The notes beneath the pieces were generated by a model that ran no database searches, had not been told where the DNA came from, and worked only from the letters and a program-made list of their open reading frames with translations. Source: Micromonospora cabrerizensis (GTDB lineage: Bacteria; Actinomycetota; Actinomycetes; Mycobacteriales; Micromonosporaceae). Taken from it: 64,000 nucleotides of DNA. The stretch lies in NCBI RefSeq assembly GCF_022230955.1, contig NZ_JAKKFI010000044.1, positions 17,475-81,474 on the forward strand. The letters are read 5' to 3'. Below, one piece after another: positions 47,200 to 63,818 of the stretch (its first letter is position 1; each line of letters begins with the position of its first letter). Both the position numbers and the translations under genes were made by a program.

Positions 47200-47239
47200 G
47201 GTCACTGTCCTCTGTCAGGTCGGACGCGGTACACCACAG

Positions 47240-48421: not shown

Positions 48422-48478
48422 GGGCTTCTCCTCTCTGGACTCCCCGTGACTGCCGGGGCCAACTGTCATCTTTCGGGT

Positions 48479-48507
48479 AGTGTTAGCGCTCACATAGGTT
48501 GCGTCAA
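48479..48507 (-). promoter_or_regulatory. Promoter and LacI-type operator of the second monosaccharide operon
   Basis: The operator TGTTAGCGCTCACA spans 48481-48494. On the minus strand TTGACG (48507-48502) and TAACAC (48485-48480) are spaced by 16 bases, so the operator covers the -10 and part of the spacer. This is site 1 of seven similar operators. Confidence 0.7.
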
Positions 48508-48633
48508 CACCAGAGCCGAAATACCGGTGTCACGGTCTCGTAACGGAGCATCCAGGCGAGCGTAGTCATGTGTTCGATCAGCGGGAAGTGGTGGACACGA
48601 CGACTCACCGTCATCGGCGCGACGCCGGACAGA

Positions 48634-48673
48634 CCGGTGCCCGCCGACGACGACTGTCGTCAGCGGGCACCGG
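48634..48673 (-). terminator. Terminator after GH27 gene
   Basis: CCGGTGCCCGCCGACGAC-gact-GTCGTCAGCGGGCACCGG, 18-bp arms with one mismatch, 58 bases after the GH27 stop. Confidence 0.8.
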
Positions 48674-48730
48674 CACGTCCGAGGGATCAGGTGGGCTGCC
48701 GCGACCCGGTCGGTCGGCGGACCCGGTCGG

Positions 48731-50377
48731 CTACCGTCGCGTCCACCGCTGGTTCGCCGCGCCGGTGCAGGTCCAGAGAAGCACCGTGGTGCCGTTGGCC
48801 GTGCCATTGTTGTTGACGTCCAGGCAGAGCCCGGACTGCGCGCCGCTGATCGTGCCGTTGGCGTTGATCGTCCACCGCTGGTTGGCCCCGCCGTTGCAGT
48901 CCCAGATCTGCACCTTGGTGCCGGCCGTGGCGTTGGGGGGTGCGTCCAGGCACTTGCCGAGAGCCTGCAGGGTCTGACCGTTGAGGGTCCAGTTCTGGTT
49001 GGCGGCGCCGTTGCAGTCCCAGATCACCGGCTGGGTGCCGTTGGTGGTGTTGCTGGCCGGAACGTCCAGGCAGCGGCCGGAGGCGGCGCTAGCGAACGCG
49101 CCCGACGTGGTCGGCGGCGGAGTCGTCGTCCCGCCACCGCTGACCCGGAACACCACCGTGCCGTGCGCGGGGACGCTGGCACTGATCGTCCCGCTGCTGG
49201 AGCTGGTGCCGCCCGTCCACGCGTCCACCAGCGTGAACGAGGAGCCGGACTTGCCGATGGCCGCGGCCGTGGTCGAGATCGTCGTCGTCGAGCCGCCCTG
49301 GTTGAACAGGGCGACGGCGACGTCACCGTTGGCGAGCCGCTTGGCCAGCACCCGACGGGTGCCGTCGAAGGACACCTGCGTCCCCTGCAACCCGAGCGAG
49401 TCCTGGTTGATCGCGATCAGGTTGGCGTTCTTGAGGATGGTCTGCGTGGCGGAGTCCATGTTCCGCACGTCGTTGCCGGCGATCAGCGGAGAGGCCATGA
49501 TCGCCCACATCGCGAAGTGGCTGCGCATCTCCGTGTCGTTCATGCCGCCCCGGCCGACCTCCATCATGTCCGGGTCGTTGAACCCACCCGGCCTCGCGTA
49601 GGACGCCAGCGGGACGGTGACGTTGATGATGTTCTGGATGCCCATCGGGTAGCCGTTGCTCTGGCCGGTGTCCCACGCGTTGGTGATGTCCTCGGTGGTA
49701 CGCCACATGTTCGCCACGTCGCCCCAGTTGCGCTGCGGGCCGGTCTTGGCGTGGATGCTGTTGGAGTTGATGCTGTAGACGATCGGTCGACCGGTGGCGG
49801 CCAGCGCGTCACGCATCTTGGCGAAGGTGGCCACCTGGTCGTTGATGCTGCCCTCGGGCGAGCACCAGTCGTACTTGAGGAAGTCGACACCCCAGGCGGC
49901 GAACTGGCGCGCGTCCTGCACCTCGTGGCCCCGGCTGCCGGTCGCGCCGGGGTAGGCGCCGAAGTACTGTGCGCAGGTCTTGTCGACCGGCACCTGGTAC
50001 AGGCCGAACTTCAGGTTGCGGGCGTGCAGGTAGTCGCCGAGCGCCTTCATCCCGCTGGGGAACCGGCCGGGGTCGCCCTGGATGTTGCCGGAGCTGTCCC
50101 GGTTGGGGTTGAACCAGCAGTCGTCGACCACGACGTAGTTGTAGCCCAGGTCCCGCATACCGCTGCTGACGATCGCATCCGCCGTCTGCCGGATCAGGGC
50201 CTCGTTGATGTTGCAGCCGAACGAGTTCCACGAATTCCAACCCATGGGGGGAGTACGCGCCACCCCGTTGTCCAGTGCCTGCGCCGCGGGGGCGCGCAGG
50301 CCGACCAGAGCGCCGGCGAGCAGCACTCCGACCGCCAGTACGCTCCCCCAGCGACGACCTCGGGTGATGCGGTTCAT
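48731..50377 (-). CDS. Secreted GH27 glycoside hydrolase (alpha-galactosidase type) with CBM13
   Basis: Exported enzyme of 548 residues. ATG 50377 follows AAGGAGG. Signal peptide to about residue 34 (AAQALDNG). The GH27 barrel (about 36-320) has TPPMGWNSWNSFGCN, VVVDDCW, KYDWC with the nucleophile Asp, and GGFNDPDMMEVG with the acid/base Asp. A beta domain follows, then a ricin trefoil (about 425-548) with three GxxxRxLD..QxW repeats. Most relatives cut alpha-galactosides. The stretch that reads SDAG in many alpha-galactosidases is QVPVDKTC here, and some GH27 members are beta-L-arabinopyranosidases, so substrate needs testing. Operator 50452-50465 puts it in the arabinose regulon. Confidence 0.88.
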   Translation of the reverse strand: MNRITRGRRWGSVLAVGVLLAGALVGLRAPAAQALDNGVARTPPMGWNSWNSFGCNINEALIRQTADAIVSSGMRDLGYNYVVVDDCWFNPNRDSSGNIQGDPGRFPSGMKALGDYLHARNLKFGLYQVPVDKTCAQYFGAYPGATGSRGHEVQDARQFAAWGVDFLKYDWCSPEGSINDQVATFAKMRDALAATGRPIVYSINSNSIHAKTGPQRNWGDVANMWRTTEDITNAWDTGQSNGYPMGIQNIINVTVPLASYARPGGFNDPDMMEVGRGGMNDTEMRSHFAMWAIMASPLIAGNDVRNMDSATQTILKNANLIAINQDSLGLQGTQVSFDGTRRVLAKRLANGDVAVALFNQGGSTTTISTTAAAIGKSGSSFTLVDAWTGGTSSSSGTISASVPAHGTVVFRVSGGGTTTPPPTTSGAFASAASGRCLDVPASNTTNGTQPVIWDCNGAANQNWTLNGQTLQALGKCLDAPPNATAGTKVQIWDCNGGANQRWTINANGTISGAQSGLCLDVNNNGTANGTTVLLWTCTGAANQRWTRR

Positions 50378-50701
50378 CGAGCCTCCTTGTCGGTGGCGCC
50401 CGCCCCTGACTACGATCTTGGGTCGGAGGGCCGATTGCTGGACGCCAATATTGTTAGCGTTAACAGAGACGCCCATCATGTTACGGCGACATTTCATGAG
50501 GTTCAATACCTTGCTCTTGATGCATTGCCGAACATCGATAGCGGTGTTCTACGGCGATCGAACGGCCTCCCGTCGACGGCAAGCAGCCGGGCTCTGCGGC
50601 AAGCAGCCGGGCATCGCGGCGGGCGGGTCCCACGCATCGCGCGTCGACCGCCGCACCGAGGGCGACGAGGAGTCGGGGCCGCCTGCTGGTCGGCCCGGGC
50701 G
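50378..50701. other. Intergenic region between GH27 and LacI genes
   Basis: 324 bases with no supported gene. Apart from the operator at 50452 it contains a 15-bp direct repeat GGCAAGCAGCCGGGC at 50578-50592 and 50598-50612, downstream of the LacI gene, of unknown meaning. Confidence 0.5.
50452..50465. promoter_or_regulatory. LacI-type operator TGTTAGCGTTAACA (site 2)
   Basis: Near-perfect palindrome TGTTAGCGTTAACA 75 bases before the GH27 start, matching the island consensus. On the minus strand AT-rich TAACAATATT follows, a likely -10 area. Confidence 0.7.
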
Positions 50702-51709
50702 TCAGCGACGCGGAGGGGCGACGCTCTCGCGGGAGACCAGGGTCGGGGCGACGGTCTGTCGTAGCGCCCCGCCGGTGCCCGACTCGATCTGGGTCAGCAG
50801 CATCTGCAGGCTCGCCCGCGCCACCGCGTCGAAGTCCGGGCGAACGGTGGTCAGCGGTGGGATGAAGTACGCCGCCTCCGGCACGTCGTCGAAGCCGACG
50901 ACGCTGATGTCGTCCGGCACCCGCTTGCCGAACTCGTGCAACGCCCGCAGCACGCCCAGCGCGAGATGGTCGTTGGCGGTGAACACCGCGGTGACCTCCG
51001 GCATCCGCGCCAACATCTGCCCGCACCGGTAACCCGAGGCCGCGGACCAGTCCCCCGGCATCAGCGGCGGCGGAACCAGCCCGGCGGCCAGCAGAGCCTC
51101 CCGCCAGCCGTCGATGCGACCGACGCTGTCGAACCAGTCGGACGGCCCCGAGACGTGCCAGACGGTGCGGTGCCCCGCGTCGAGCAGATGTTGCGTCGCC
51201 GCCCGGGCGCCCGCCACCTGGTCGACCGTCACCAGTGGCACCGGTCGGCTCGGGTCACCGTCGACCGTGACCAGTGGGACATCCTTCGGCAGGCGTTCCA
51301 GCGCCTCACCGGCCGACTCGACCGGCGCGATGACCACGATGCCGGCGACGCGGTGCGACAGGTGCCGCTCGACGGCCGCCGAGATGGACCGGTGGTCCAG
51401 GTTGCGGACGCTGCCGACACTCACCGCGAAACCCTCTTCGGCGGCGGTCTGCTCCAACGCCGCCAGCAGTGACGCGGGACCGTAGAGCGTCGTGTTCTGT
51501 GCGACCACGCCGATGACCTGCGACCGACCGGTCACCAGCGCGCGTGCCGCGCCGTTCGGGCGGTAACCGAGTTCGGCGATCGCCGCGCGCACCCGGAGCC
51601 GGGTCTGCTCACGGACGTTGGGGTGCCCGTTGAGCACCCGCGACACCGTCTGATGGGAGACACCGGCGAGACGAGCAACGTCCGTCATCGCGGGACCGTG
51701 GACGGCCAT
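50702..51709 (-). CDS. LacI family transcriptional repressor
   Basis: Sugar-responsive repressor of 335 residues. The N-terminal helix-turn-helix and hinge helix are at about residues 7-60 (MTDVARLAGVSHQTVSRVLN, LGYRPNGAARALVTG). The core is the type-1 periplasmic-binding fold with VVAQNTTLYGP, GIVVIAPVES, WHVSGPSDWFDS, VFTANDHLALGVLRALHEFG and VVGFDDVPEAAYF. WFDSVGRIDGW matches LacI members that bind galactosides, arabinosides or related sugars. ATG 51709 follows GGGGGAG. It lies amid seven similar operators and is the obvious regulator of the GH27, GH43, ChvE and ara transcription units; no such operator precedes its own gene. Confidence 0.9.
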   Translation of the reverse strand: MAVHGPAMTDVARLAGVSHQTVSRVLNGHPNVREQTRLRVRAAIAELGYRPNGAARALVTGRSQVIGVVAQNTTLYGPASLLAALEQTAAEEGFAVSVGSVRNLDHRSISAAVERHLSHRVAGIVVIAPVESAGEALERLPKDVPLVTVDGDPSRPVPLVTVDQVAGARAATQHLLDAGHRTVWHVSGPSDWFDSVGRIDGWREALLAAGLVPPPLMPGDWSAASGYRCGQMLARMPEVTAVFTANDHLALGVLRALHEFGKRVPDDISVVGFDDVPEAAYFIPPLTTVRPDFDAVARASLQMLLTQIESGTGGALRQTVAPTLVSRESVAPPRR

Positions 51710-52103
51710 TTCGCTCCCCCCGCTACATCTCCGGCCCGCAGCCCGTCGACGTCGACTGGAGCGGCCCGGCCCGATCCCCCTCGCTCAGTCACCACGCCGG
51801 TGCTGAATCCCAGGTGACCAGCGCTGGATCGCCGACAGTCTACGCCAGCCACCGCCCCGAACACGGGACGGCGGTAGGGGGTCCGCGCAACGCGCCGAGC
51901 CGCACAACGCAGCCCCCACCTGGAGTACGCCGCCAAGCGGCGTACGCCGTCGATCCCCGACGCCACGCCGGCCCGCCCCACGCTCCGTGGACAGAGCGTG
52001 GAGCAGGCCGGCGAGGGCGTCACGCGGTGGCGCGGGCTCGACGAGCCGGCGGGCACGTCCGGGCCGGCGCCACCGGATCAGCCCGATCCTGGTGTGACTG
52101 GTG
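51710..52103. other. Intergenic region between LacI and GH43 genes, with hairpins
   Basis: 394 bases, no gene supported. GTACGCCGC-caa-GCGGCGTAC (51925-51945) and CCACGCTC-N8-GAGCGTGG (51978-52001) are inverted repeats downstream of the GH43 gene; the second may be its terminator. The LacI promoter must lie in 51710-51850, but I see no clear boxes. Confidence 0.5.
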
Positions 52104-54200
52104 TCACGGCGTTGTCAGGTCGAACCTGCGAACGGTGACCGCGCCACCGAGCGCCTGGGTTGCGTGGTTGAAGATGGCGAACCGGTAGCCCATGAAGAAC
52201 TGCCAGTTGTTCGCCAGGGTGAGGGCATTGCCGAACGAGGTGAAGTTGACCCCGTCCGTGCTGTACGAGAACCGCGCCTGCCGACCGGACCCGGGTCTGA
52301 TGTCGGCGTTGGCCCGCAACCAGATCCGACCACCCGAGACGGGGGTGCTCGCCACCTCGCTGCCGGTGCTGGTGGTGTTCCAGCTGCCGTCCATCGTCAG
52401 GCCGTTCTGCATGACCAGACGGGTCGACCCGTTGTCCCGCCGGACGCCGATCCAGGCCGACGAGTTGCGCAGCACCGCCAGGCCGGTGCGGTCACCGTCG
52501 CGCATCGTGGAGTAGTCCAACTCGATCGTCGCCGTCGAGGTGGGGCCCTGGATGCGGTGGGTCAGCGTGTTGCGTGCCTTGTACAGGTCGCCGGTGACGG
52601 TGGCGGCCTGGAGGTTCAGCCCGTTGTTGACCGACCACTTGCTGTTGTCCGGGTTGTGGTTCCACTCCCACTGTGGTCCGAGAGTGGTGCCGGCGAACGT
52701 GTCGGTGCCGGTCAGCGGCTTGACCGCGCGCGGTGGCGCGGGCAGGTTCGGCTTCGGGTACGAGGCGCCCCAGGCGCCGTTGACCGTCTGCAGCACCGGC
52801 CAGCCGTCGCTGCTCCAGGTGATCGGGGCCATCGCCGGCATCCGACCACCGGGGTACGCGTCGACGAAGGACATGTAGTACCAGTCGCCGTTCTGGGTCT
52901 GCACCAGCCCACCCTGGTGCGGCACGCCGCCGCCGGAGATCGGGCCGGGCAGGTTGAGCAGCACCTGCCGCTGCTCGTACGGGCCGAACGGGCCGTTGGT
53001 CGACTTCAGCACGTACTGGCCGTTGGCGGGGCGGGTGAGCCAGATGTAGTAGGCGCCGTTGCGCTTGTAGAACCGGGCGCCCTCCAGCGTGCCGATGCTC
53101 GACGGGGTGGTGTACACCTGCTGGGCGCGAACCTGCGACTTCCCGTCCGCGGACAACTGCGCGACGCTGATGGTGCCGTTGCCGTACGCCACGTACATGG
53201 TGTCGTTGTCGTCGACCAGCAAGCCGGCGTCGTAGTAGCAGTTCGGGATGGTGGTGTGCTTGCTCCACGCGCCGTCGACTGCGGACGCGGTGTAGATGTG
53301 GGTCTGCGCGAAGTCGATGCACCCCGCCCAGTAGTACGTCTTGTTGCTCGGTCGGTAGTTCAGCGTCGACGCCCAGATCCCGTCGACGTACGCGTTGCCG
53401 CCGCTCATGTCGTACTTCGCGCCGAAGTCGAGCCTGGGCACGGAGTGACCGGCGAACTCCCAGTTCACCAGGTCGTACGAGCGCAGCACCGGCGCTCCCG
53501 GCGAGTAGTGCATGGTCGACGCCGACATGTAGTAGGCGTTGTCGACCCGGATGATGTCGACGTCGGCGAAGTCCTGCCAGACCACCGGGTTCGGGTACGA
53601 CGTGCCGGGGTTGCCGGGGTTGCTGCCGCCGACCTGGACGAGTTGCCACTGCTGGTTGGTGCCGCCCCAGTCGGCGTACTGCACGACGTTCCCGCCGTCG
53701 GCGGTGGACGCGCCCTGCACCTCGGCGGCCTTGTTGCTGTTGCGGTTGATCAGCCGCACGAAGCCACCGTCCGAGTCGGCCAGCCGGAACTGCTGGTTCG
53801 TCCCGTTGAGATCGGCCCACTGCACGATCGCGGCACCGTCGGCGGTGGAGAAGCCACTGACGTCGAGCACCTTGCCCGAGTGGCGCGACTTGATCCGGTA
53901 GTAGCCACCCCCGGAGTCCACGAACTGCCACTGCTGGTTCACGCCGTTGTTACGCGTCCACTGGCTGATCCGCGCCCCGTCGTTGGTGGCCGAGGCGTAC
54001 AGGTCCAACGCCTTACCACTGTTGCGGTTCACCAGCACGTAGTAGGCGTTGGTGTCGACAGTCGCCGCTGACGCGGCGGTCGGCGCGACAGCCGCCAGAG
54101 CCCCGCCGACGACCACCGCGACCGCGGCGGCGACGAGTCGCGACAGCCGACCGCGCCCTCGCGCTGGTGTTGTCCAGGGAACCCGACCGATGGCAACCAT
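52104..54200 (-). CDS. Secreted GH43 arabinofuranosidase/xylosidase-type hydrolase with CBM13
   Basis: Exported enzyme of 698 residues. ATG 54200 follows AAAGGAGG; signal peptide to about residue 46 (TAASAAT). A ricin-type trefoil comes first (about 48-185; NQQWQFVD, NQQFRLAD, NQQWQLVQ). The GH43 five-bladed propeller (about 196-500) shows the three acidic residues in FADVDIIRVD, GLLVDDND and LEGARFYKR. A C-terminal beta-sandwich (about 510-698, WNHNPDNSKWSV) is typical of large GH43 enzymes that trim arabinoxylan or arabinan side chains. It releases sugars that the downstream-encoded transporters and Ara enzymes can use. Two operators lie upstream (54286, 54397). Confidence 0.88.
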   Translation of the reverse strand: MVAIGRVPWTTPARGRGRLSRLVAAAVAVVVGGALAAVAPTAASAATVDTNAYYVLVNRNSGKALDLYASATNDGARISQWTRNNGVNQQWQFVDSGGGYYRIKSRHSGKVLDVSGFSTADGAAIVQWADLNGTNQQFRLADSDGGFVRLINRNSNKAAEVQGASTADGGNVVQYADWGGTNQQWQLVQVGGSNPGNPGTSYPNPVVWQDFADVDIIRVDNAYYMSASTMHYSPGAPVLRSYDLVNWEFAGHSVPRLDFGAKYDMSGGNAYVDGIWASTLNYRPSNKTYYWAGCIDFAQTHIYTASAVDGAWSKHTTIPNCYYDAGLLVDDNDTMYVAYGNGTISVAQLSADGKSQVRAQQVYTTPSSIGTLEGARFYKRNGAYYIWLTRPANGQYVLKSTNGPFGPYEQRQVLLNLPGPISGGGVPHQGGLVQTQNGDWYYMSFVDAYPGGRMPAMAPITWSSDGWPVLQTVNGAWGASYPKPNLPAPPRAVKPLTGTDTFAGTTLGPQWEWNHNPDNSKWSVNNGLNLQAATVTGDLYKARNTLTHRIQGPTSTATIELDYSTMRDGDRTGLAVLRNSSAWIGVRRDNGSTRLVMQNGLTMDGSWNTTSTGSEVASTPVSGGRIWLRANADIRPGSGRQARFSYSTDGVNFTSFGNALTLANNWQFFMGYRFAIFNHATQALGGAVTVRRFDLTTP

Positions 54201-54285
54201 GATCCTCCTTTGACGTTGCGAACCGAACGGCCTGGGCCGGTATCCAGGGCACCGGGCGGTGCGCCGAACTGACCCGATCGCCGAA

Positions 54286-54299
54286 TGTGATCGCTAACA
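54286..54299. promoter_or_regulatory. LacI-type operator TGTGATCGCTAACA (site 3)
   Basis: Matches the island consensus in reverse orientation, 86 bases before the GH43 start. Its partner site lies 111 bases further upstream, a spacing that would allow DNA looping. Confidence 0.65.
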
Positions 54300-54396
54300 T
54301 CACTCACCGTGCTTCACGGCGCTGATTCGCGCGCGCGGGTGAGGGACGTGATCGCGGCCGGGCCAGCCACAGACATCGACCGTCTTAGTTATAGAC

Positions 54397-54410
54397 TGTG
54401 AGCGATAACA
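54397..54410. promoter_or_regulatory. LacI-type operator TGTGAGCGATAACA (site 4)
   Basis: Second site upstream of the GH43 gene. It resembles the left part of the E. coli lac operator (TGTGAGCGGATAACA) without one base. Confidence 0.7.
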
Positions 54411-54466
54411 CGCCCTTAGTCAAGACGTAACCCAATCGGCTCGCGGTCGTGCTAGCGCGCACGCGA

Positions 54467-54519
54467 ACGGGTGGCCCAGCCCCTGCCCGAGGGATGCGGG
54501 CAGGGACGGGACCACCCGT
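54467..54519 (-). terminator. Terminator of the ara operon
   Basis: A long hairpin with ACGGGTGGCCC...CCTGCCCG pairing with CGGGCAGG...GACCACCCGT around agggatg, 23-bp arms with three mismatches, 26 bases after the araA stop. Confidence 0.8.
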
Positions 54520-54545
54520 CGCGTGACGCGGCTCAGCCGCCCGGC

Positions 54546-56048
54546 TCAGAAGCCGCGCGCCAACCGGTAGTAGGCCTGGTTCCAGCGGATCTCGTCGGCG
54601 AAACGACGCGGCTGGGTGTCGGCGTCGATGACGACCAGTTCGGTGCGGCTCATCTCGGCCAGGTCGTGCAACTCCTCCACCCCCACCGCCTGCGACAGAA
54701 CGGTGTGGTGCGGCGCGCCCGCGGTGATCCACGACTCCGCCGAGACCGGCAGGTCAGGTCGCGGACGCCAGACCGCGCGGGCCACCGGCAGCCGGCGCAG
54801 CGGCTGCGGCGGGGCGACGACGTCGATCTCGTTGGCGACGAGCCGGAAGCGCTCCCCCATGTCGGCCAACCCGAGCACCACCGCCGGGCCGGGCGCGGCG
54901 TCGAAGACCAGCCGGACCGGGTCCTCCCGCCCGCCGATGCTCAGCGGGTGGATCTCCACGTTCGGCACGCCGGACGCGATGGTCGGGCAGACCTCCAGCA
55001 TGTGGGCGCCGAGCACCAGCTCCTCACCCGGGGTGAGGTCGTAGGTGTAGTCCTCCATGAACGACGTGCCGCCGTCCACGCCCACCGACATCGCCTTGAG
55101 GGTCCGGACCAGCACCGAGGTCTTCCAGTCACCCTCGCCACCGAAGCCGTAGCCGTCGGCCATCAGCCGCTGCACGGCGATGCCGGGCAGCTGACGCAGG
55201 CCACCGAGGTCCTCGAAGTTCGTGGTGAAGGCCCGGAACCCGCCCTCGTCCAGGAAGGTACGCATGCCCAGCTCCAGGCGGGCCGCATACCGCAGGGAGT
55301 CGTGCCGCTCACCCCCGGAGAGCAGGTCCGCGACGACCCGGTACGTGTCCTCGTACTCCTTGACGAGGTCGTCCACCTGCGCGTCGGTGACCTCGCCGAC
55401 CACCTCGACCAGGTCGTTGACCCCGTAGGTGTTGACCGACACCCCGAACCGCAGCTCCGCCTCGACCTTGTCGCCCTCGGTCACCGCCACGTCGCGCATG
55501 TTGTCGCCGAAGCGGGCCAGGCGCAGCGACCGCATCGCCGACCAACCGAGCGCGGCGCGGGCCCACGCCCCGACCCGGGCACTCACCCGCGGGTCGCTGA
55601 CGTGCCCGGCCACCGTCTTGCGGGCCACACCGAGACGGGTCTGGATGTACCCGAACTCGCGGTCGCCGTGCGCGGCCTGGTTCAGGTTCATGAAGTCCAT
55701 GTCGATGTCGTTCCACGGCAACAGGACGTTGGCCTGCGTGTGCAGGTGCAGCAGCGGGGTCTGCAGCGCGTCCAGACCGGCGATCCACATCTTCGCCGGT
55801 GAGAAGGTGTGCATCCACGCGATGACCCCGATGGCGCCCTGGGCCGCGGCCTCCCGGCAGACCTGCAGGATCTCGCTGCTGTTGGTCAGGACGGGCTTCC
55901 AGACCACCCGGGCGGGAATCTGCGGCGAGTCGTCGAGCGCGGCCGCGATCTGGCGAGACTGCTCGGCGACCTGCCGGAGCGTCTCCTCGCCGTACATGCC
56001 TTGGCTGCCGGTGAGGAACCAGATCTCGGGTTCGGTGTGTGGTGCCAT
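54546..56048 (-). CDS. araA: L-arabinose isomerase
   Basis: Cytoplasmic Mn2+-dependent isomerase, L-arabinose to L-ribulose, 500 residues, the normal length of bacterial AraA. It starts [20 protein letters not shown], the family N-terminus. Active-site regions are intact: [34 protein letters not shown] and GAPHHTVLS hold the metal-binding Glu and His residues. Also typical are [14 protein letters not shown] and [16 protein letters not shown] 56048 is chosen for the family start. It is the last gene of the seven-gene minus-strand operon beginning with araB, separated from araB and araD by the four transporter genes. Confidence 0.95.
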
Positions 56049-56074
56049 GGGGTTGCCTTCCGCGAGAGGGGCGG

Positions 56075-57064
56075 TCACTTGTAACGGATTCCGATGAGGC
56101 GTTGGAGGAGGATGAACGCGAAGAGCAGACCGCCGATCACGATCTTGGTCCACCAGGAGTTGAGACTCCCGTCGAAGGTGATGAGGGTCTGGATCACGCC
56201 CAGCACCAGGACGCCGAGCACCGTGCCGAACACGTAACCCGAGCCGCCGGTGAGCACCGTGCCTCCGATGACGACGGCGGCGATGACGTCCAGCTCCATC
56301 CCGACGGCGATCAACGGTGCGCCGGAGAGGGTGTAGAAGGACAGCAGGATCCCACCGATCGCGGAGCACAGACCGCTGATGGTGTAGACGGCGATCCTGG
56401 TCCGCCCCACCGGCAGACCCATCAGCAGGGCCGACTGTGGGTTGCCGCCGATGGCGTACACGTTGCGTCCCAGCCGGGTGTAGGCCAGCACGTACGCGGC
56501 GACGGCGACCACGACGAAGGCGATCAGCACGCTGATCGAGACGAAGTTGCCTCGGGGATCGCCGATCCGTTCCTGCGACATCCTGGTCCAGAACCCGTCG
56601 GTGATCGGGATGGACGAGCCGGAGATGAACGTGCACATCCCCCGGGCGAAGAACATCCCGGCGAGCGTGACGATGAACGGCTGGATCTCGAAGAAGTGGA
56701 TGGCGCAGCCCATCAGCAGACCGAGCGTCGGCCCGATGAGCAGGGCGATGACGAGCACCAGGGCCGCCGGCAGGCCTTCCTGGAGCAGCCAGGCCGACAC
56801 CATCGCCGTCATCGCCACGACCGACCCGACCGACAGGTCGATGCCGCCGGTGAGGATCACGAAGGTCATCCCGATCGCGACCACGAGCAGGAAACCGTTG
56901 TCGATGAAGACGTTGAAGATGACCTGCACGTTCGAGAACGCCTGGTACTGGGACACCCCGATGCCGTACATCACCAGCAGGAGGACGAGCGTGGCCAGCA
57001 CCGGTATCTGCCGCCTCGGCAGCCGGAACCGGGCACGACCAGCGGTGAGCGATCCAGTGGTCAT
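56075..57064 (-). CDS. yjfF: Sugar ABC transporter permease (YjfF-like)
   Basis: Membrane subunit of 329 residues with eight to ten helices. YjfF-type landmarks: [75 protein letters not shown] and [20 protein letters not shown]. In E. coli YjfF pairs with YtfT and the YtfR ATPase to import galactofuranose delivered by YtfQ. In this ara operon the natural cargo would be L-arabinose or arabinofuranose (inference). ATG 57064 overlaps the preceding permease stop as ATGA. Confidence 0.88.
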
Positions 57065-58127
57065 GCCGGTACCTGCTCCTTCGGCTTGTCGGCGATGGTG
57101 TCGGGCTTCGGGGCGCTGCGCCTGCGGCGGGCGAACCGGGCCCGGAAGGCCGGCGCCTGGATCAGGCAGACGGCGATGACGACGACCGCTTTGAACAGCA
57201 GCGAGGTCTGCGGTGAGATGTCCATGGCGTACACCGTGGTGGTCAGCGTCTGGATGATCAGCGCGCCGAGGATCGTGCCACTGAGGAAGAACCGACCACC
57301 GGCGAGCGACGTACCGCCGATGACGACGGCGAGGATGGCGTCCAGCTCCACCCAGAGGCCGACCGCGTTGCCGTCGGCACTGGAGACGTTGGCCGTCATC
57401 ATGAAACCGGCGATCGCGGCACAGGCGGCGCTGAGCACGTACGCGAGGAAGATGACCCGGCCGGAGCGGATGCCGGCCAACCGGCTCGCCTCGGCGTTAC
57501 CACCCACCGACTCGACGATCATCCCGAGTGCGGTGCGCCGGGTGAACGCGGCGACGAGCAGAGCCGCGGCGAGGGCGATGAAGATGGCCAGCGGCAGGGT
57601 GAACAGGTGGCCCAGCCCGATCGCCCGGAACGGCTCGGAGTTGATGGTGATGATCTGACCCTGGGTGATCAGCTGGGCGAGACCCCGGCCGGCCACCATC
57701 AGGATCAGGGTGGCGATGATCGGTTGGATCCCGATCACGGCCACCAGCACTCCGTTCCAGGCCCCGAGCACGAGCGCGACCCCCAGCGCCATCGCGAGGG
57801 CGGTCAGCACCACGACAAGGCTGTTCTGGTCGGACTGCTTGCTGATGTACATGCAGGCGATCGCGCCGCTGATCGCACAGACCGACCCCACCGACAGGTC
57901 GATGCCGCCGGTCGAGATGACGAGGGTCATCCCCAGCGCGACGAGGATCAGCGGTGCGCTCAGCCGCAGGATGTCGATCGGCGAGCCGTACAGGTGCCCG
58001 TCCTTGAGCTCGATCGACAGGAACCCGGGCCGGTAGATCGTGTTCGCGGCGAGCATGACGACCAGCACGGCGGCGGGCCAGAACAGCCGGTGACCGGTCA
58101 CCGCCCGGTAGCGGCCCATGGTGGCGT

Positions 58128-58131
<4 letters not shown>
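57061..58131 (-). CDS. Sugar ABC transporter permease (YtfT-like)
   Basis: Partner permease of 356 residues. It begins [19 protein letters not shown] and contains [60 protein letters not shown] and [20 protein letters not shown]. The C-terminal 25 residues are basic and cytoplasmic ([10 protein letters not shown]). Together with YjfF it forms a heterodimeric channel. ATG 58131 overlaps the ATPase stop as ATGA; an upstream in-frame reading to 58416 lies inside the ATPase gene and is rejected. Confidence 0.88.
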
Positions 58132-59669
<1,538 letters not shown>

Positions 59670-59722
59670 CCCATCAGACCTCTTCTGGGTTGTCGACACG
59701 GAAGGGCCGCCACCGCCCCGTG

Positions 59723-59835
59723 CGCCCGCCCGGTCGTCCCTGCGGGTCGTCCGGGCGGGCGTGTTGCCACGGGGTGGTCGCGGGCCGAGCCCGGTCCGTT
59801 GCGGGTAGGGGGACGGCGCGGCGGGGCCGCCGCGC
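59723..59835 (-). terminator. Intra-operon hairpins after the YtfQ-like gene
   Basis: GCGCGGCGG-gg-CCGCCGCGC (59816-59835) lies 24 bases after the binding-protein stop, and CGCCCGCCCGG pairs with CCGGGCGGGCG (59723-59761) further on. They may attenuate transcription into the ATPase gene and stabilise the binding-protein message. Confidence 0.5.
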
Positions 59836-59858
59836 GAGCGCGGCGACCCCGGCGTCGA

Positions 59859-60863
59859 TCAGTACTTGCGGTTGGGCAGTGCTTCCTTGGCCTGCGCCTG
59901 GGTGAAGGTGGTCTCCTCGGTCTCGATCCGAGGCGCCACCTGCTCGCCGGCGTGCACCTTCTTGGCGAGGTCCATCAGCTGCGGGCCGAGCAGCGGGCTG
60001 CACTCCGCGATGAAGTTGAACTTCCCGTCGGCGAGAGCCTGCATACCGTCCTTGACAGCGTCGACCGTGATGATGGTGATGTCCTTGCCGGGAACCTTGC
60101 CGGCAGCGGTGATCGCCTCGAGCGCGCCCAGGCCCATGTCGTCGTTGTGCGCGAACAACACGTCGATCTTCGGGTTGGCCTTGAGGAACTGCTCCATGAC
60201 CTGCTTGCCGCCGGCGCGGGTGAAGTCACCCGGCTGGGAGGCGATGACCTTCAGGTTCGGGTTGGCGGCGATCGCCTCGGCGAAGCCCTTCTTACGGTCG
60301 TTCGCCGGCGCCGCACCGGTGTTGCCCTGCAGCTCGACGATGTTCACCGGGCCCGAGGCGGTCTTCTTCTGCTCGACCAGCCACTCACCGGCGAGCCGAC
60401 CCTCCTTGACGAAGTCCGAGCCGAGGAAGGTCTTGTACAGGCTCTTGTCGGCCGAGTCCACCGAGCGGTCGGTCAGGATGACCGGGATGTCGGCGTCCTT
60501 GGCCTCCTTGAGCACGGTGTCCCACCCGGACTCCACCACCGGCGAGAAGGCGATCACGTCGACCTTCTGCTGGATGTAGTTGCGGATCGCCTTGATTTGG
60601 TTTTCCTGCTTCTGCTGAGCGTCGTCGAACTTCAGCTCGACTCCGGCCGCAGCGGCGGCCTCCTTGATCGAGGTGGTGTTCGCGGTACGCCAGCCGCTCT
60701 CCGCGCCGACCTGGGAGAAGCCCATCGTGATCTTGCCGTCGTCCTTGGAACCGCCACCGCCGGTGTCGCTGTTGCCGCAGGCCGCCACGCCGCCGACGAG
60801 CAGCACGCTGGCGAGGACCGCGGCAGCGCGCCACGGAGCGGACTGCGTTCGCATCTTTCTCAT
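59859..60863 (-). CDS. Sugar ABC transporter substrate-binding lipoprotein (YtfQ-like)
   Basis: Lipid-anchored binding protein of 334 residues. ATG 60863 follows AAGGAG. The signal peptide ends in the lipobox VGGVAAC. The mature N-terminus carries the YtfQ signature MGFSQVGAESGWRTANTTSI; further on are VDVIAFSPVVESGWD, VILTDRSVDSADKSLY, FLGSDFVKEGR and VLFAHNDDMGLGALEAI. YtfQ of E. coli binds galactofuranose; in actinobacterial ara operons the related proteins probably bind L-arabinose (inference from context). Third gene of the operon, 139 bases after araD; that gap holds two copies of a 10-bp direct repeat CGTGCTGGTG (60941-60960). Confidence 0.9.
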   Translation of the reverse strand: MRKMRTQSAPWRAAAVLASVLLVGGVAACGNSDTGGGGSKDDGKITMGFSQVGAESGWRTANTTSIKEAAAAAGVELKFDDAQQKQENQIKAIRNYIQQKVDVIAFSPVVESGWDTVLKEAKDADIPVILTDRSVDSADKSLYKTFLGSDFVKEGRLAGEWLVEQKKTASGPVNIVELQGNTGAAPANDRKKGFAEAIAANPNLKVIASQPGDFTRAGGKQVMEQFLKANPKIDVLFAHNDDMGLGALEAITAAGKVPGKDITIITVDAVKDGMQALADGKFNFIAECSPLLGPQLMDLAKKVHAGEQVAPRIETEETTFTQAQAKEALPNRKY

Positions 60864-61002
60864 CGGATCTCCTTGGCTCAGTGTGGTGGGGAACCGCGCC
60901 AACCGCCGAGGTGCGAAAAGAGCGGCGTACGCGGGTGGTGCGTGCTGGTGCGTGCTGGTGCGTCGGTGGTGCAGACCAGCGGGCTTCGGCCTGGCCGAAC
61001 GG

Positions 61003-61695
61003 TCAGGAACCCGCGGGTGGGACTGGTTGTTGACCGTAGACGTTCTGGTAACGGTCATAAAGAGCATCGATGTCTGCCTGCGCCATCGGCACGGGCTGCC
61101 CCAGTGCGTGGGCCAGATGTGCCGTACGGGCCACGTCCTCGCACATGACCGCGGCCTTGACCGCAGCGCGGGCGTCCCGGCCGATGGTGAAGACGCCGTG
61201 GTTGCGCATCAGCACCGCGGGTGAGCGGTGACCGGCGAGCGTGGCGACGATGCCCTTGCCGATGTCATCGCCGCCGATCAGAGCGAACGGGCCGATCGGG
61301 ATCTCCCCGCCGAACTCGTCGGCCTGCGCGGTGAGGTGGCACGGGATCGCCTCGCCGCAGGCGGCCCACGCGGTGGCGTACGAGCTGTGCGTGTGCACGA
61401 CCCCACCAACCTCGGGCATGGCCCGGTAGACGTAGGCGTGCGCGGCGGTGTCACTGGACGGGGCGAAGTCGCCCTCGACGAGAGCGCCGTCGAGGTCACA
61501 CACCACCATGGTGTCCGCGGTGAGGTCGTCGTAGCTGACGCCGCTCGGCTTGATGACCAGCAGATCCTGGCCGGGGACCCGCGCGGAGACGTTGCCGGAG
61601 GTCCAGGCGACCAGGCCGTACCGGGTCAGCTCGGAGTGCAGGCGGGCGACGGTCTCGCGCAGCTCGCGGATCTGTCGGGTCACCTCGGTGCTCAT
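61003..61695 (-). CDS. araD: L-ribulose-5-phosphate 4-epimerase
   Basis: Cytoplasmic zinc enzyme of 230 residues, the normal AraD length, converting L-ribulose 5-phosphate to D-xylulose 5-phosphate. Class II aldolase/epimerase motifs are clear: LVAWTSGNVSARVPG, IKPSGVSYDDL, SSDTAAHAYVYRAMPEVGGV, zinc ligands in VVHTHSSYATAWA (His-x-His) and RNHGVFTIG (third His). Tyr and acidic residues near the C-terminus (DIDALYDRYQNVYGQ) fit the AraD end. ATG 61695 overlaps the araB stop as ATGA. Second gene of the operon. Confidence 0.94.
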   Translation of the reverse strand: MSTEVTRQIRELRETVARLHSELTRYGLVAWTSGNVSARVPGQDLLVIKPSGVSYDDLTADTMVVCDLDGALVEGDFAPSSDTAAHAYVYRAMPEVGGVVHTHSSYATAWAACGEAIPCHLTAQADEFGGEIPIGPFALIGGDDIGKGIVATLAGHRSPAVLMRNHGVFTIGRDARAAVKAAVMCEDVARTAHLAHALGQPVPMAQADIDALYDRYQNVYGQQPVPPAGS

Positions 61696-63374
61696 GCGAC
61701 CACCTCCAACGCGGCCTCGGGTGCGGCCGCAGCGGTTCCGGCTGCCGCGTTGCGGATCGCCCGCAGGCGGAGCATGACGTCGTTGCCGCCGCGACCGAAG
61801 TGGTCGTGCAGCGTCCGGTACTCGGCGTAGAGGGCGTCGTACGCGCGCGCCCGCTCGGGGTCCGGTCGGTAGACGGCCTCGTGCACGCGGCCCATCGCCT
61901 GCGACGCCTCGTGGACCGAGGGGAACTCACCGGCGGCCACGGCGGCGTGGATCGCCGATCCCAGCGCCGGCCCCTGCGCCGAGGCGATGATGTTCAGTGG
62001 CCGCCTGGTCACGTCGGCGTAGATCTGCATCAGCAGCGCGTTGTTGGTGAGACCGCCGGCGATCACGAGGTCGTTCACCGCGACTCCGGCCTCGACGAAC
62101 GCCTCGATGATCATCCGAGTGCCGTACGCGGTGGACTCCAGCAGCGCCCGGTAGACGTCCTGCGGCCGGGTGGCCAGGGTCATCCCGACGATCATCCCGC
62201 TGAGGTCGTGGTTGACCAGCAGGGAACGGTTGCCGTTCCACCAGTCCAGGGCGACCAGACCGTGTGCGCCGACCGGCTGGCTCGCGGCCAGCTCGGTGAG
62301 GCGCTCGTGCGAGTCGACGCCGGCCGGAGCCGCGTGCTCGACGAACCAGCCGAAGATGTCGCCGACACCGCTCTGCCCGGCCTCGTAACCCCACGCACCG
62401 GGGCTGATGCCGCCGTCCACGACACCGCACATCCCGGCCACCTCGGCGACCTGGGCGCCGTTGACCACGTGGCAGGTCGAGGTGCCCATGATGGCGACGA
62501 GCCGGCCGGGCTCCACGGCCTGGGCGGACGCCGCGGTGACGTGGGCGTCGACGTTGCCGACGGCGACCGCGATCCCCTCCGGCAGGCCGGTCCAGGCGGC
62601 AGCCTGCGCGGTGAGCGAGCCGGCCCGGGCGCCCAGCGGCAGCAACGGACCGTCCAGCTTGGTCACGAAGTCGCCGAACCCGGGGTTGAGCGAGGTCAGG
62701 AAGTCCGCACTCGGGTACTGGCCGTCCTGAAGGATGCCCTTGTAGCCGGCCGTGCAGACGTTGCGGGTCTCGGTGCCGCAGAGCTGCCAGACGATCCAGT
62801 CGGCCGCCTCGATGAAACGCTCCGCGCGGTGGTAGACCTCGGGGTCCTCCTCCAGCATCTGGAGCCCCTTGGCGTACTGCCACTCGGCGGAGATCTTGCC
62901 GCCGTACCGGCCGATCCACGGCTCGGCCCGCTCGTGGGCCAGCGCGTTGATCCGGTCGGCGTGCGTCTGCGCCGCGTGGTGCTTCCACAGCTTGACCCAG
63001 GCGTGCGGTCGGTCGCGCAGCTCCGGATCCTCGCAGAGCGGGACGCCGTCGGCGTTCGTCGGCAGCACCGTGCAGGCGGTGAAGTCGATGCCGATGCCGA
63101 CGACCGCGGCCGGATCCACGCCCGCGGCGGACACCGCCGCCGGGACGGCGTACCGCAGCACGTCGCGGTAGTCCTCCGGGTTCTGCAGGGCCCAGTCCGG
63201 GGGAAGCGCTCGACCTCCCGGAAGCGCCGTGCTGATCACTGCGTCGCCGTACTCGTGCACCGCGGTCCCCAACTCGGCACCATCACCGACACGGACCACC
63301 AGAGCGCGCCCGGACAGGGTGCCGTAGTCGACACCGACGACATAGCGGTCGCCTGCTCCGTCCACACGGTTCAT
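61692..63374 (-). CDS. araB: Ribulokinase
   Basis: ATP-dependent L-ribulose kinase of 560 residues, FGGY family. N-terminal phosphate-binding motif YVVGVDYGTLSGRALVVR; then GIGIDFTACTVLPTN, KLWKHHAAQTHADRINALAH, the AraB-typical AEWQYAKGLQMLEED, MGTSTCHVV, and the C-terminal FGGY signature region GLTNNALLMQIYADVTRRPL. This length and the WKHHAAQ segment separate AraB from xylulokinase. ATG 63374 has GGAGG five bases upstream; the GTG at 63386 is too far forward. First gene of the araB-araD-transporter-araA operon, controlled by the operator and promoter at 63401-63429. Confidence 0.95.
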   Translation of the reverse strand: MNRVDGAGDRYVVGVDYGTLSGRALVVRVGDGAELGTAVHEYGDAVISTALPGGRALPPDWALQNPEDYRDVLRYAVPAAVSAAGVDPAAVVGIGIDFTACTVLPTNADGVPLCEDPELRDRPHAWVKLWKHHAAQTHADRINALAHERAEPWIGRYGGKISAEWQYAKGLQMLEEDPEVYHRAERFIEAADWIVWQLCGTETRNVCTAGYKGILQDGQYPSADFLTSLNPGFGDFVTKLDGPLLPLGARAGSLTAQAAAWTGLPEGIAVAVGNVDAHVTAASAQAVEPGRLVAIMGTSTCHVVNGAQVAEVAGMCGVVDGGISPGAWGYEAGQSGVGDIFGWFVEHAAPAGVDSHERLTELAASQPVGAHGLVALDWWNGNRSLLVNHDLSGMIVGMTLATRPQDVYRALLESTAYGTRMIIEAFVEAGVAVNDLVIAGGLTNNALLMQIYADVTRRPLNIIASAQGPALGSAIHAAVAAGEFPSVHEASQAMGRVHEAVYRPDPERARAYDALYAEYRTLHDHFGRGGNDVMLRLRAIRNAAAGTAAAAPEAALEVVA

Positions 63375-63400
63375 GTTCACCTCCACCGTTAACGGGGATA

Positions 63401-63429
63401 GTGTTAACGCTCACATCCAGCCTCGTCAA
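63401..63429 (-). promoter_or_regulatory. ara operon promoter with LacI-type operator (site 5)
   Basis: On the minus strand TTGACG (63429-63424) and TAACAC (63406-63401) are 17 bases apart. The operator TGTTAACGCTCACA (63402-63415) covers the -10 and spacer, the same layout as at 48479-48507. A further palindrome CCGTTAACGG lies at 63386-63395, close to the start codon. Confidence 0.75.
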
Positions 63430-63664
63430 GACATCTGCCCGCAACAGCTCCGTAACGGAACGCCAAGGACGGGCCGACTCGGGAGCGTCGATAACGGACC
63501 AGCGCAAAAGGCGCGAATCCGGTTCCGCACGCTGCCGCCGCACTCCGGACGGGGTTGTCGCACGGACCGACCACCGCCCGGACGCCCCCCAGCGGGCACG
63601 ACGACAAGGTCCCACCCTCCGCCACCACGAGACGGCTACCCGACGGCGACCGCGTGCCGGTCGC

Positions 63665-63690
63665 CGATGATGTTGGCGATAACATCATCG
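63665..63690. promoter_or_regulatory. LacI-type operator inside a 10-bp-arm palindrome (site 6)
   Basis: CGATGATGTT-ggcgat-AACATCATCG has perfect 10-bp arms; its core TGTTGGCGATAACA (63671-63684) matches the island consensus with one departure. Confidence 0.65.
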
Positions 63691-63804
63691 ACGCGTTGCG
63701 ATCTCTTGGTCGGATCTATGGAACCGCCGACGACCGCCGCACGGGCACCCGGGTGAGCGCCCCGGCGAGTGACCGGTGCATCTCGCGGCGGTTTGCGTTG
63801 CGGG

Positions 63805-63818
63805 TGTTATCGATAACA
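63805..63818. promoter_or_regulatory. LacI-type operator TGTTATCGATAACA (site 7)
   Basis: A perfect 14-bp palindrome, 134 bases from site 6. Both sites are far from araB (about 300-430 bases), so they more likely serve a rightward gene near or beyond the window end. Confidence 0.65.

What the first reader, a model, noticed from the sequence alone, without database searches (positions are those of the whole stretch)
48481..63818. Seven copies of one LacI-type operator define an arabinose/galactoside regulon
TGTTAGCGCTCACA (48481), TGTTAGCGTTAACA (50452), TGTGATCGCTAACA (54286), TGTGAGCGATAACA (54397), TGTTAACGCTCACA (63402), TGTTGGCGATAACA (63671) and TGTTATCGATAACA (63805) share the pattern TGTTARCGNTMACA or its reverse. 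They precede the ChvE importer, GH27, GH43 (two), the ara operon, and the right-edge gene (two). I saw none in the first 48 kb. One LacI gene (50702-51709) sits among them. This predicts a single sugar-responsive regulon joining secreted enzymes, uptake and catabolism, and assigns an operator to an undescribed LacI protein.
Basis: partly seen in the sequence, partly recalled or inferred. Interest (0 to 1): 0.75.

Follow-up and report, generated by a model that had tools for sequence, protein, structure and literature searches.

The report
Arabinose regulon built on lac-type operators
In this Micromonospora-type genome, 18 exact copies of one lac-operator-like 14-letter palindrome stand in front of genes for arabinose breakdown, sugar uptake and plant-fibre enzymes or binding proteins, and a nearby close relative of the E. 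coli lac repressor likely binds them and would release the whole set when arabinose is present.

Summary
In detail: all seven sites exist, none in the first 48 kb, 0.08 expected by chance. Six fit TGTKANCGNTMACA exactly. The genome has 18 exact copies, 12 outside the window, before GH10, GH43, GH62, GH127, esterase, CBM2 and sugar-ABC genes; the reversed pattern gives none.

The window LacI is the likely reader. It alone of 23 LacI has an HQTVSR helix. Of 121 family genomes, 91 with a homologue average 11.7 sites, 30 without 0.3. Orthologues in other genera carry the site before their own gene. TTGAC lies 13-14 bp before the operator in 84 of 191 orthologue-locus sites, so the operator fills the promoter spacer.

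One claim fails: 63671 and 63805 most likely belong to araB, not to a right-edge gene.

The kind is known: Bifidobacterium AraQ uses TGTGAGCGCTCACA (PMC4746261, PMC6882875). New are the genome-wide spread to secreted enzymes and the grouping of E. coli LacI with this partly arabinose-linked clade (100/99). Binding and effector are untested; L-arabinose is inferred.

The parts
50702..51709 (-). LacI-family repressor, AraQ-like, HQTVSR recognition helix; predicted reader of the operators
   Evidence: Pfam LacI 73.9 bits and Peripla_BP_3 120.5 bits; only one of 23 LacI in the genome with this helix; grouped with E. coli LacI 100/99; phylogenetic profile
48481..48494 (-). operator of the ChvE-type importer, 60 bp before the likely start at 48421
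   Evidence: exact match
48503..48507 (-). TTGAC box (-35-like), 13 bp before the operator
47279..48421 (-). ChvE sugar-binding protein
   Evidence: NCBIfam ChvE 514.7 bits, cut-off 460 (run on the longer frame 47279-48493)
45661..47199 (-). sugar ABC ATPase (GguA position)
   Evidence: Pfam ABC_tran (run on 45661-47205)
44414..45664 (-). sugar ABC permease GguB
   Evidence: NCBIfam GguB 532.1 bits, cut-off 450
50452..50465 (-). operator of GH27, 75 bp before the start at 50377
48731..50377 (-). GH27 with ricin-B-type lectin domain, probably secreted; alpha-galactosidase-like
   Evidence: Pfam Melibiase_2 and Ricin_B_lectin (run on 48731-50506); best PDB match 3a21, DDCW where 3a21 has DEGW
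54286..54299 (-). operator of GH43, 86 bp before the start
54397..54410 (-). operator of GH43 lying in the promoter spacer; equals the E. coli lac O1 core without its central G
54419..54423 (-). TTGAC box, 13 bp before the operator
52104..54200 (-). GH43 with ricin-B-type lectin domain, probably secreted
   Evidence: Pfam Glyco_hydro_43, GH43_C2, RicinB_lectin_2
63402..63415 (-). proximal operator of the ara operon
63425..63429 (-). TTGAC box, 14 bp before the operator
63671..63684 (-). weaker operator (1 mismatch), upstream araB region
63805..63818 (-). distal ara operator, 403 bp from the proximal one
   Evidence: exact; spacing 403-405 bp in L154 and L188-L192
61692..63386 (-). araB ribulokinase
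   Evidence: TIGR01234 744.9 bits, cut-off 583.25
61003..61695 (-). araD L-ribulose-5-phosphate 4-epimerase
   Evidence: NF005123 374.1 bits, cut-off 251
59859..61067 (-). sugar-binding protein of the ara ABC importer (YtfQ-like; start probably further in)
   Evidence: Peripla_BP_4; YtfQ 344.7 bits, below cut-off 510
58128..59669 (-). sugar ABC ATPase of the ara operon
   Evidence: frame and position; not family-scanned
57061..58131 (-). sugar ABC permease of the ara operon
   Evidence: frame and position; not family-scanned
56075..57064 (-). second sugar ABC permease of the ara operon
   Evidence: frame and position; not family-scanned
54546..56048 (-). araA L-arabinose isomerase
   Evidence: NF002795 791.5 bits, cut-off 622

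Best explanation
The LacI-family protein encoded at 50702-51709 likely is an AraQ-type repressor that binds the 14-bp lac-like palindrome TGTKANCGNTMACA and would let go when L-arabinose enters the cell, opening together the araBDA operon, sugar importers and predicted arabinan- and arabinoxylan-degrading enzymes. Shown by calls: the 18 exact sites and their genes; the co-occurrence of LacI and sites; an operator before lacI in part of the orthologues; the grouping with E. coli LacI; and the TTGAC box 13-14 bp before the operator in part of the sites, which puts the operator in the promoter spacer. Inferred: physical binding, repression by keeping RNA polymerase off the promoter, the dimeric state (the protein lacks the C-terminal tail of E. 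coli LacI), and L-arabinose as inducer. The sugar inference rests on three points: araBDA is in the regulon and xylA is not, many target families release arabinose, and L-arabinopyranose is D-galactose without C6 (textbook), which suits the retained LacI pocket.
For: Sites. Targets: GH10 x3, GH43-AbfB, GH43-CBM6, GH62 x2, GH127, esterase/CBM2, sugar ABC; 2 of 2 GH62, 3 of 5 GH10 and 2 of 3 AbfB genes have a site in front, one AbfB site with a mismatch. Reader: 1 of 23 LacI with HQTVSR. Profile: 91 LacI+ genomes mean 11.7 sites (80 of 91 with 3 or more), 30 LacI- mean 0.3 (0 of 30 with 3 or more), Mann-Whitney p 4e-15, not corrected for kinship. Orthologues: 70 of 80 loci carry a site, 206 sites against 0 reversed in 1.56 Mb; 17 of 80 have one within 500 bp before the start of the LacI match, at -42 to -93 in two Umezawaea and five Saccharothrix. 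Promoter: TTGAC at -14..-7 of the operator in 6 of 18 genome sites (control windows 1, 0, 0) and 85 of 191 orthologue-locus sites (0, 2, 2), 84 of the latter at -13 or -14. Saccharothrix: 20 of 20 scanned neighbours, chosen by me, are carbohydrate-active, carbohydrate-binding or sugar-dehydrogenase-like. Streptomyces L197 (49% identity) has sites before lacI/araD and araB. Known twin: gel shifts put AraQ on 47-48-bp segments holding TGTGAGCGCTCACA (PMC6882875, passages). xylA, TIGR02631 627 bits, has no site on its contig.
Against: No binding or expression data. Eleven of 91 LacI+ genomes have 2 or fewer sites, three of them none. The control repressor L028 also co-occurs with the sites (97 genomes, mean 11.0; 24 without, mean 0.25); only 8 genomes separate the two in my favour, and the 2 LacI+ genomes without L028 have 2 or fewer sites. 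The C106 site lies about 4.8 kb from the L028 gene. Ten of 80 orthologue loci show no site within the fetched stretch. The window lacI has no operator directly in front. In Saccharothrix only 1 of 30 sites has the TTGAC spacing, no more than its controls. Three targets are GH10 xylanases and two other GH10 genes (C97, C15) have no site. The effector of AraQ was sought and not found, and MalR1 bound the same operators as AraQ (PMC6882875). Many genomes hold several 50-58% paralogues, so the one-reader view is cleanest only in genomes like this one.
Confidence: 0.78

Rival explanations
1. Same regulon and same LacI, but the effector is not L-arabinose: an arabino-oligosaccharide, D-galactose, or an intermediate such as D-xylulose 5-phosphate.
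For: AraQ was tested against several compounds without consistent effect and D-xylulose 5-phosphate was proposed for it (PMC6882875, PMC4746261, passages). The regulon holds an alpha-galactosidase-like GH27 and ChvE. The E. coli pocket residues D149, R197, W220, N246, D274 and F293 are kept (their ligand roles are recalled).
Against: Arabinofuranosidase-type families are frequent among the targets. xylA is outside the regulon. Effector binding was not tested in any call.
Confidence: 0.35
2. A different regulator, or several LacI paralogues, reads these sites.
For: The genome has 23 LacI proteins; paralogues in other genomes seem to carry sites beside their own genes (places compared); L028 co-occurs with the sites; in B. 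breve two LacI proteins, AraQ and MalR1, bound the same operators (PMC6882875, passages).
Against: None of the other 22 has the HQTVSR helix. The 8 genomes with L028 but no window-type LacI average 0.6 sites. L028 has no exact site in its 3.1-kb locus.
Confidence: 0.1
3. The sites belong to a xylose/xylan regulon like the Xanthomonas and Caulobacter xyl-box (Xanthomonas TGGTAGCGCTAACA, XylR).
For: The box differs from TGTTAGCGCTAACA in one letter; three GH10 xylanases carry exact sites and a GH30 a one-mismatch site.
Against: XylR itself was not put in the tree.
Confidence: 0.08
4. Chance or a repeat element.
For: Five of the 16 one-mismatch hits are one identical 14-mer, TGCGACCGGTCACA, so some near matches are something else.
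Against: 0.08 expected in the window; 1071 exact sites against 20 reversed over 121 genomes (tables, summed); each of the 18 exact sites of this genome lies before a carbohydrate-related gene by my gene calls.
Confidence: 0.01

Closest known systems
AraQ of Bifidobacterium (LacI family)
   Same: Palindrome TGTGAGCGCTCACA, linkage to araBDA, predicted control of arabinose genes; AraQ binding shown by gel shift at eno and pyk segments (PMC4746261, PMC6882875, passages). A PF07944 (GH127-type)-aga operon belongs to the B. adolescentis regulon (PMC4746261, passage).
   Different: Bifidobacterial AraQ spread to central glycolysis. Here none of 18 exact sites precedes a glycolytic gene by my gene calls; they precede carbohydrate-enzyme, importer and ara genes. 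The 2016 paper reported no distant sites in other Actinomycetales; here 12 exact ones lie outside the window.
E. coli LacI and lac operator
   Same: Grouped together 100/99; Q18, R22, L56 and several pocket residues kept; TGTGAGCGATAACA equals lac O1 TGTGAGCGGATAACA without the central G (O1 read at L153).
   Different: 36% identity; Y17 is H; no C-terminal tail (335 against 360 aa); even 14-bp palindrome; operator in the promoter spacer (the lac O1 position downstream of the start site is recalled); arabinose genes.
AraR (LacI type) of Corynebacterium glutamicum ATCC 31831
   Same: LacI-family repressor of L-arabinose utilization with L-arabinose as ligand (table and reference list of PMC13056197, passages).
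   Different: Its operator and sequence were not seen here (Kuge 2014 not held); orthology not tested.
XylR / xyl-box of Xanthomonas and Caulobacter
   Same: LacI-type repressor; the Xanthomonas box TGGTAGCGCTAACA is near-identical, and the regulon covers xylan degradation and xylose use (PMC10380989, passages).
   Different: Xylose and xylA; here araBDA and not xylA.
AauR, AbfR, BauR of Bifidobacterium
   Same: LacI regulators of alpha- and beta-arabino-oligosaccharide enzymes (PMC5928203, abstract and passages).
   Different: Presumed local repressors, apart from araBDA control; here one operator covers enzymes, uptake and catabolism.

Membership tests
LacI/GalR family | LacI-type helix-turn-helix plus periplasmic-binding-protein-like domain | tested here: met
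   PF00356 73.9 bits, PF13377 120.5 bits, both over cut-off
E. coli-type LacI (NCBIfam subfamily PRK09526) | score over the curated cut-off of 340 | tested here: not met
   289.4 bits, the best NCBIfam match
E. coli-type LacI (NCBIfam subfamily PRK09526) | C-terminal tetramerization tail (recalled) | tested here: not met
   the protein ends near LacI residue 334 in the alignment; 335 against 360 aa
AraQ | palindrome of the class TGTGAGCGCTCACA | tested here: met
   window sites share its arms; the exact string occurs in M. lupini; consensus from PMC4746261
AraQ | linked to and preceding araBDA | tested here: met
   araB, araD, araA identified over cut-off, operators before araB
AraQ | orthology with bifidobacterial AraQ protein | not tested
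AraQ | control of central glycolytic genes (bifidobacterial form) | tested here: not met
   none of the 18 exact sites lies before a glycolytic gene by my gene calls
AraQ | physical binding to the operator | not testable with these tools
   needs gel shift
XylR / xyl-box | operator before xylA | tested here: not met
   xylA at C76:66752; no site on C76 even with 1 mismatch
AraR of C. glutamicum | same operator and orthologous protein | not tested
   primary papers not held

The most novel reading that the evidence does not exclude
The lac operator is older than the lac operon: E. coli LacI is a branch of a repressor family, found in Actinomycetota and Deinococcota and in several members tied to arabinose genes, that already read TGTGAGC/TGTTATC half-sites. 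It kept the operator and pocket while its genes changed from L-arabinose (galactose without C6) to beta-galactosides. In Micromonosporaceae and Saccharothrix the same regulon became a genome-wide arabino-polysaccharide programme.
Probability: 0.4. Interest if true: 0.68.

Novelty: new variant of a known kind. Interest (0 to 1): 0.48.

Why it matters
It gives one predicted switch for plant-polysaccharide use in a large family of soil and plant-associated actinomycetes, and names its operator, promoter layout and 14 target regions in this genome. It makes the unsolved AraQ effector testable in a protein whose regulon points to one sugar. It also links the best-studied operator in biology to a natural arabinose regulon, which bears on where the lac system came from and on building arabinose-responsive lac-operator circuits.

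Tried and rejected
Right-edge gene as target: rejected; in 7 of 8 relatives examined (L154, L187-L192) the nearest gene beyond the sites ends toward them; only L193 has a divergent gene. The DNA search matched 25 of 31 genomes including this one; I fetched six of them and took two more from named relatives.

GH27 as a beta-L-arabinopyranosidase: considered because the best PDB match is 3a21; the window has DDCW where 3a21 has DEGW, so it looks like an alpha-galactosidase (the role of that residue and the activity of 3a21 are recalled).

Xylose reading: disfavoured on xylA. TIGR02630 alone did not reach its cut-off; TIGR02631 did.

Looping like lac: the 403-405 bp araB spacing is conserved in near relatives, but M. 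lupini has 459 and L193 has 154, and the tetramer tail is absent, so looping is not claimed.

E. coli LacI nested inside the group: the best tree pairs it with a Deinococcus relative (99/93), but the tree with it outside all relatives is not rejected (p-AU 0.084). LacI is a long branch with unlike composition. The second tree left out six long-branch rows (five of this genome's LacI and EbgR); the first kept all 22 paralogues. Two members of the group, L194 and L196, are not beside arabinose genes and L195 is unannotated.

Literature: 'TGTTAGCGCTAACA' in 0 papers; six variants in 3 papers, two with the Xanthomonas xyl-box string and one Lactobacillus paper not read; Micromonospora + LacI + arabinoxylan + arabinose in 0. 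One search for the 'ancestral LacI' structure 9nt3 found nothing relevant.
Full report
What was checked. The seven sites exist at the stated places. In the self-complementary form TGTKANCGNTMACA six are exact and 63671 has one mismatch. Shuffles give 0.08 matches for the window pattern. The first 48 kb has no exact copy. The window ends at the end of contig C73, so nothing right of 64000 is visible.

Genome-wide sites. The assembly (6.92 Mb, 133 contigs) has 18 exact sites and 16 with one mismatch; the reversed pattern gives 9 at up to one mismatch and none exact. My gene calls place all 18 exact sites, in 14 regions, upstream of carbohydrate-related genes. In the window: chvE, GH27, GH43 (two sites) and the ara operon (63402 and 63805). 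Outside: GH10 (C72), GH43-AbfB and GH10 (C75), a sugar ABC permease (C77, two sites; a divergent CbtA-type cobalt gene lies on the other side), GH62 (C84), GH62 (C86), a CBM2 protein without a recognised catalytic domain (C100), a divergent pair of esterase and CBM2-fn3 protein (C106), and GH10, GH43-CBM6 and GH127 (C109, three sites). Of the 16 one-mismatch sites, four pair with an exact site (C72, C73, C75, C86), two precede GH43-AbfB and GH30-CBM2 (C40), and two precede an SGL-domain gene (C81) and a sugar-binding protein (C83). The other eight are not explained by this regulon; five are one identical 14-mer, whose surroundings I did not fetch.

Organism. LacI orthologues at 96-98% identity are all Micromonospora. 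One same-genus genome holds a contig of 103,274 bases, the length of the M. chokoriensis contig. I take the host as Micromonospora by inference.

Which LacI. The genome has 23 LacI proteins. Only the window's has GVSHQTVSR. In 121 Micromonosporaceae-type genomes, 91 with a homologue (E<=1e-60) average 11.7 exact sites and 30 without average 0.3; none without it has three or more (10 of the 30 were not listed by the tool and were filled in by elimination). The test is not corrected for kinship. A control, the paralogue L028, is found in 97 genomes, so it co-occurs too. The 8 genomes with L028 but no window-type LacI average 0.6 sites, which favours the window LacI, while the 2 with LacI but no L028 also have few. 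Eleven LacI+ genomes have two or fewer sites.

Orthologue loci. Of 80 fetched orthologue loci (one search found 106 relatives and kept 80), 70 carry at least one site: 206 sites against 0 reversed in 1.56 Mb. In 17 of 80 a site lies within 500 bp before the start of the LacI match; in two Umezawaea and five Saccharothrix it is at -42 to -93. Those matches begin at query residue 6, so true distances to the start codon are somewhat shorter. The window's own lacI lacks one; it follows the GH43 gene and may share its promoter.

Promoter architecture. In the window, TTGAC lies 13 bp (chvE, GH43) or 14 bp (araB) before the operator's first base. Within -14 to -7 it occurs in 6 of 18 genome sites (control windows 1, 0, 0) and 85 of 191 distinct orthologue-locus sites (controls 0, 2, 2), which come from related genomes. 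A -35 there with a 16-17-bp spacer puts the -10 on the operator's far arm. Repression by blocking polymerase is the natural reading (inferred). The Saccharothrix sites do not show this spacing (1 of 30).

The ara upstream region. Sites 63671 and 63805 were ascribed to a gene beyond the edge. In 7 of 8 relatives examined, M. saelicesensis (L154), M. lupini (L187) and L188-L192, the next gene looks like an ABC-2-type permease (by sequence appearance, not scanned) running toward the sites; only L193 has a divergent gene. Both sites are therefore best read as ara operators. The 63402-63805 spacing of 403 bp is 403-405 bp in L154 and L188-L192.

Conservation in other genera. Saccharothrix sp. ALI-22-I (G124) has 40 exact sites; the listing was cut, and I examined 30 of them in 19 stretches. 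I scanned 20 neighbouring proteins of my choice and all 20 matched carbohydrate-active, carbohydrate-binding or sugar-dehydrogenase-like domains: GH127, GH43, AbfB, GH62, GH27, GH31, GH3, GH30, GDSL-lectin and others. Four stretches had no protein scanned: L156, whose gene resembles the GH127 ones, and L166, L168 and L169, where no target is evident. In a Streptomyces plasmid (L197, 49% identity) sites lie before lacI/araD and araB; in Deinococcus (L198, 44%) between araB and an arabinofuranosidase. Two Streptomyces relatives (L194, L196) have none within 17 kb.

Sugar. araA, araB and araD are identified over curated cut-offs. xylA is present elsewhere without a site. GH62 2 of 2, GH10 3 of 5, AbfB 2 of 3 have sites. 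E. coli LacI residues D149, R197, W220, N246, D274 and F293 are kept; N125, S191 and Q291, among others, are changed (their roles are recalled). L-arabinose is the best inference, galactose or an oligosaccharide the nearest rival.

Relation to LacI. In two trees E. coli LacI falls with the window clade (100/99), apart from PurR, RbsR, GalR, CytR and the other LacI of this genome. EbgR was in the first tree only; GalS, AscG, MalI, GntR and Cra in the second only. In the second tree it pairs with the Deinococcus arabinose-linked LacI (99/93), but placing it outside all relatives is not rejected (p-AU 0.084). The group also holds two Streptomyces LacI without arabinose neighbours. TGTGAGCGATAACA is the lac O1 core without its central base (O1 read).

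Known work. Bifidobacterium AraQ has consensus TGTGAGCGCTCACA and distant homologues beside ara operons in Actinomycetales, for which no distant sites were found (PMC4746261, passages). Gel shifts show AraQ, and also MalR1, on such palindromes; the AraQ effector was sought without success (PMC6882875, passages). AraQ relatives with araFGH were listed for Arthrobacter, Geodermatophilus and Stackebrandtia (PMC5928203, abstract and passages). The present regulon is therefore an AraQ-type regulon of a wider, polysaccharide-directed scope; protein orthology with AraQ was not tested.

Verdict. Real, conserved and mechanistically coherent; the kind was known. The extension and the link to LacI did not appear in my searches, which cover open-licence papers only.

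Noticed in passing
G000 C6:95481, C83:137141, C95:41754, C114:112272, C114:122337: Five copies of one identical asymmetric 14-mer TGCGACCGGTCACA (either strand) appear among the one-mismatch hits; probably a different element.
   Followed up: no
window 63402-63818; L154, L188-L192: Distal and proximal ara operators keep a 403-405 bp spacing in close relatives; the 401 bp lac O1-O2 spacing (recalled) is similar, but the tetramer tail is missing.
   Followed up: partly
L043 (G000 C77:2000-18000): Two exact operators lie between a third sugar ABC transporter (permease, binding protein, ATPase) and divergent cobalt-transporter-type genes; the transporter's sugar is unknown.
   Followed up: partly
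tables: Other genera hold several 50-58% LacI paralogues, some apparently with operators beside their own genes (for example in G029, G102, G111, G119), suggesting paralogues that share one operator.
   Followed up: partly
L195, NZ_LT559118.1: The Nonomuraea gerenzanensis record filed as a plasmid is 11.85 Mb long, so it is probably the chromosome; three exact operators flank its LacI relative.
   Followed up: no
L198, Deinococcus sp. KNUC1210 plasmid: Sites TGTGAACGTTCACA and TGTGAACGATCACA lie between araB and an arabinofuranosidase gene, and TGTGAGCGTTCACA precedes a sugar ABC gene, so the regulon type seems to reach Deinococcota.
   Followed up: partly
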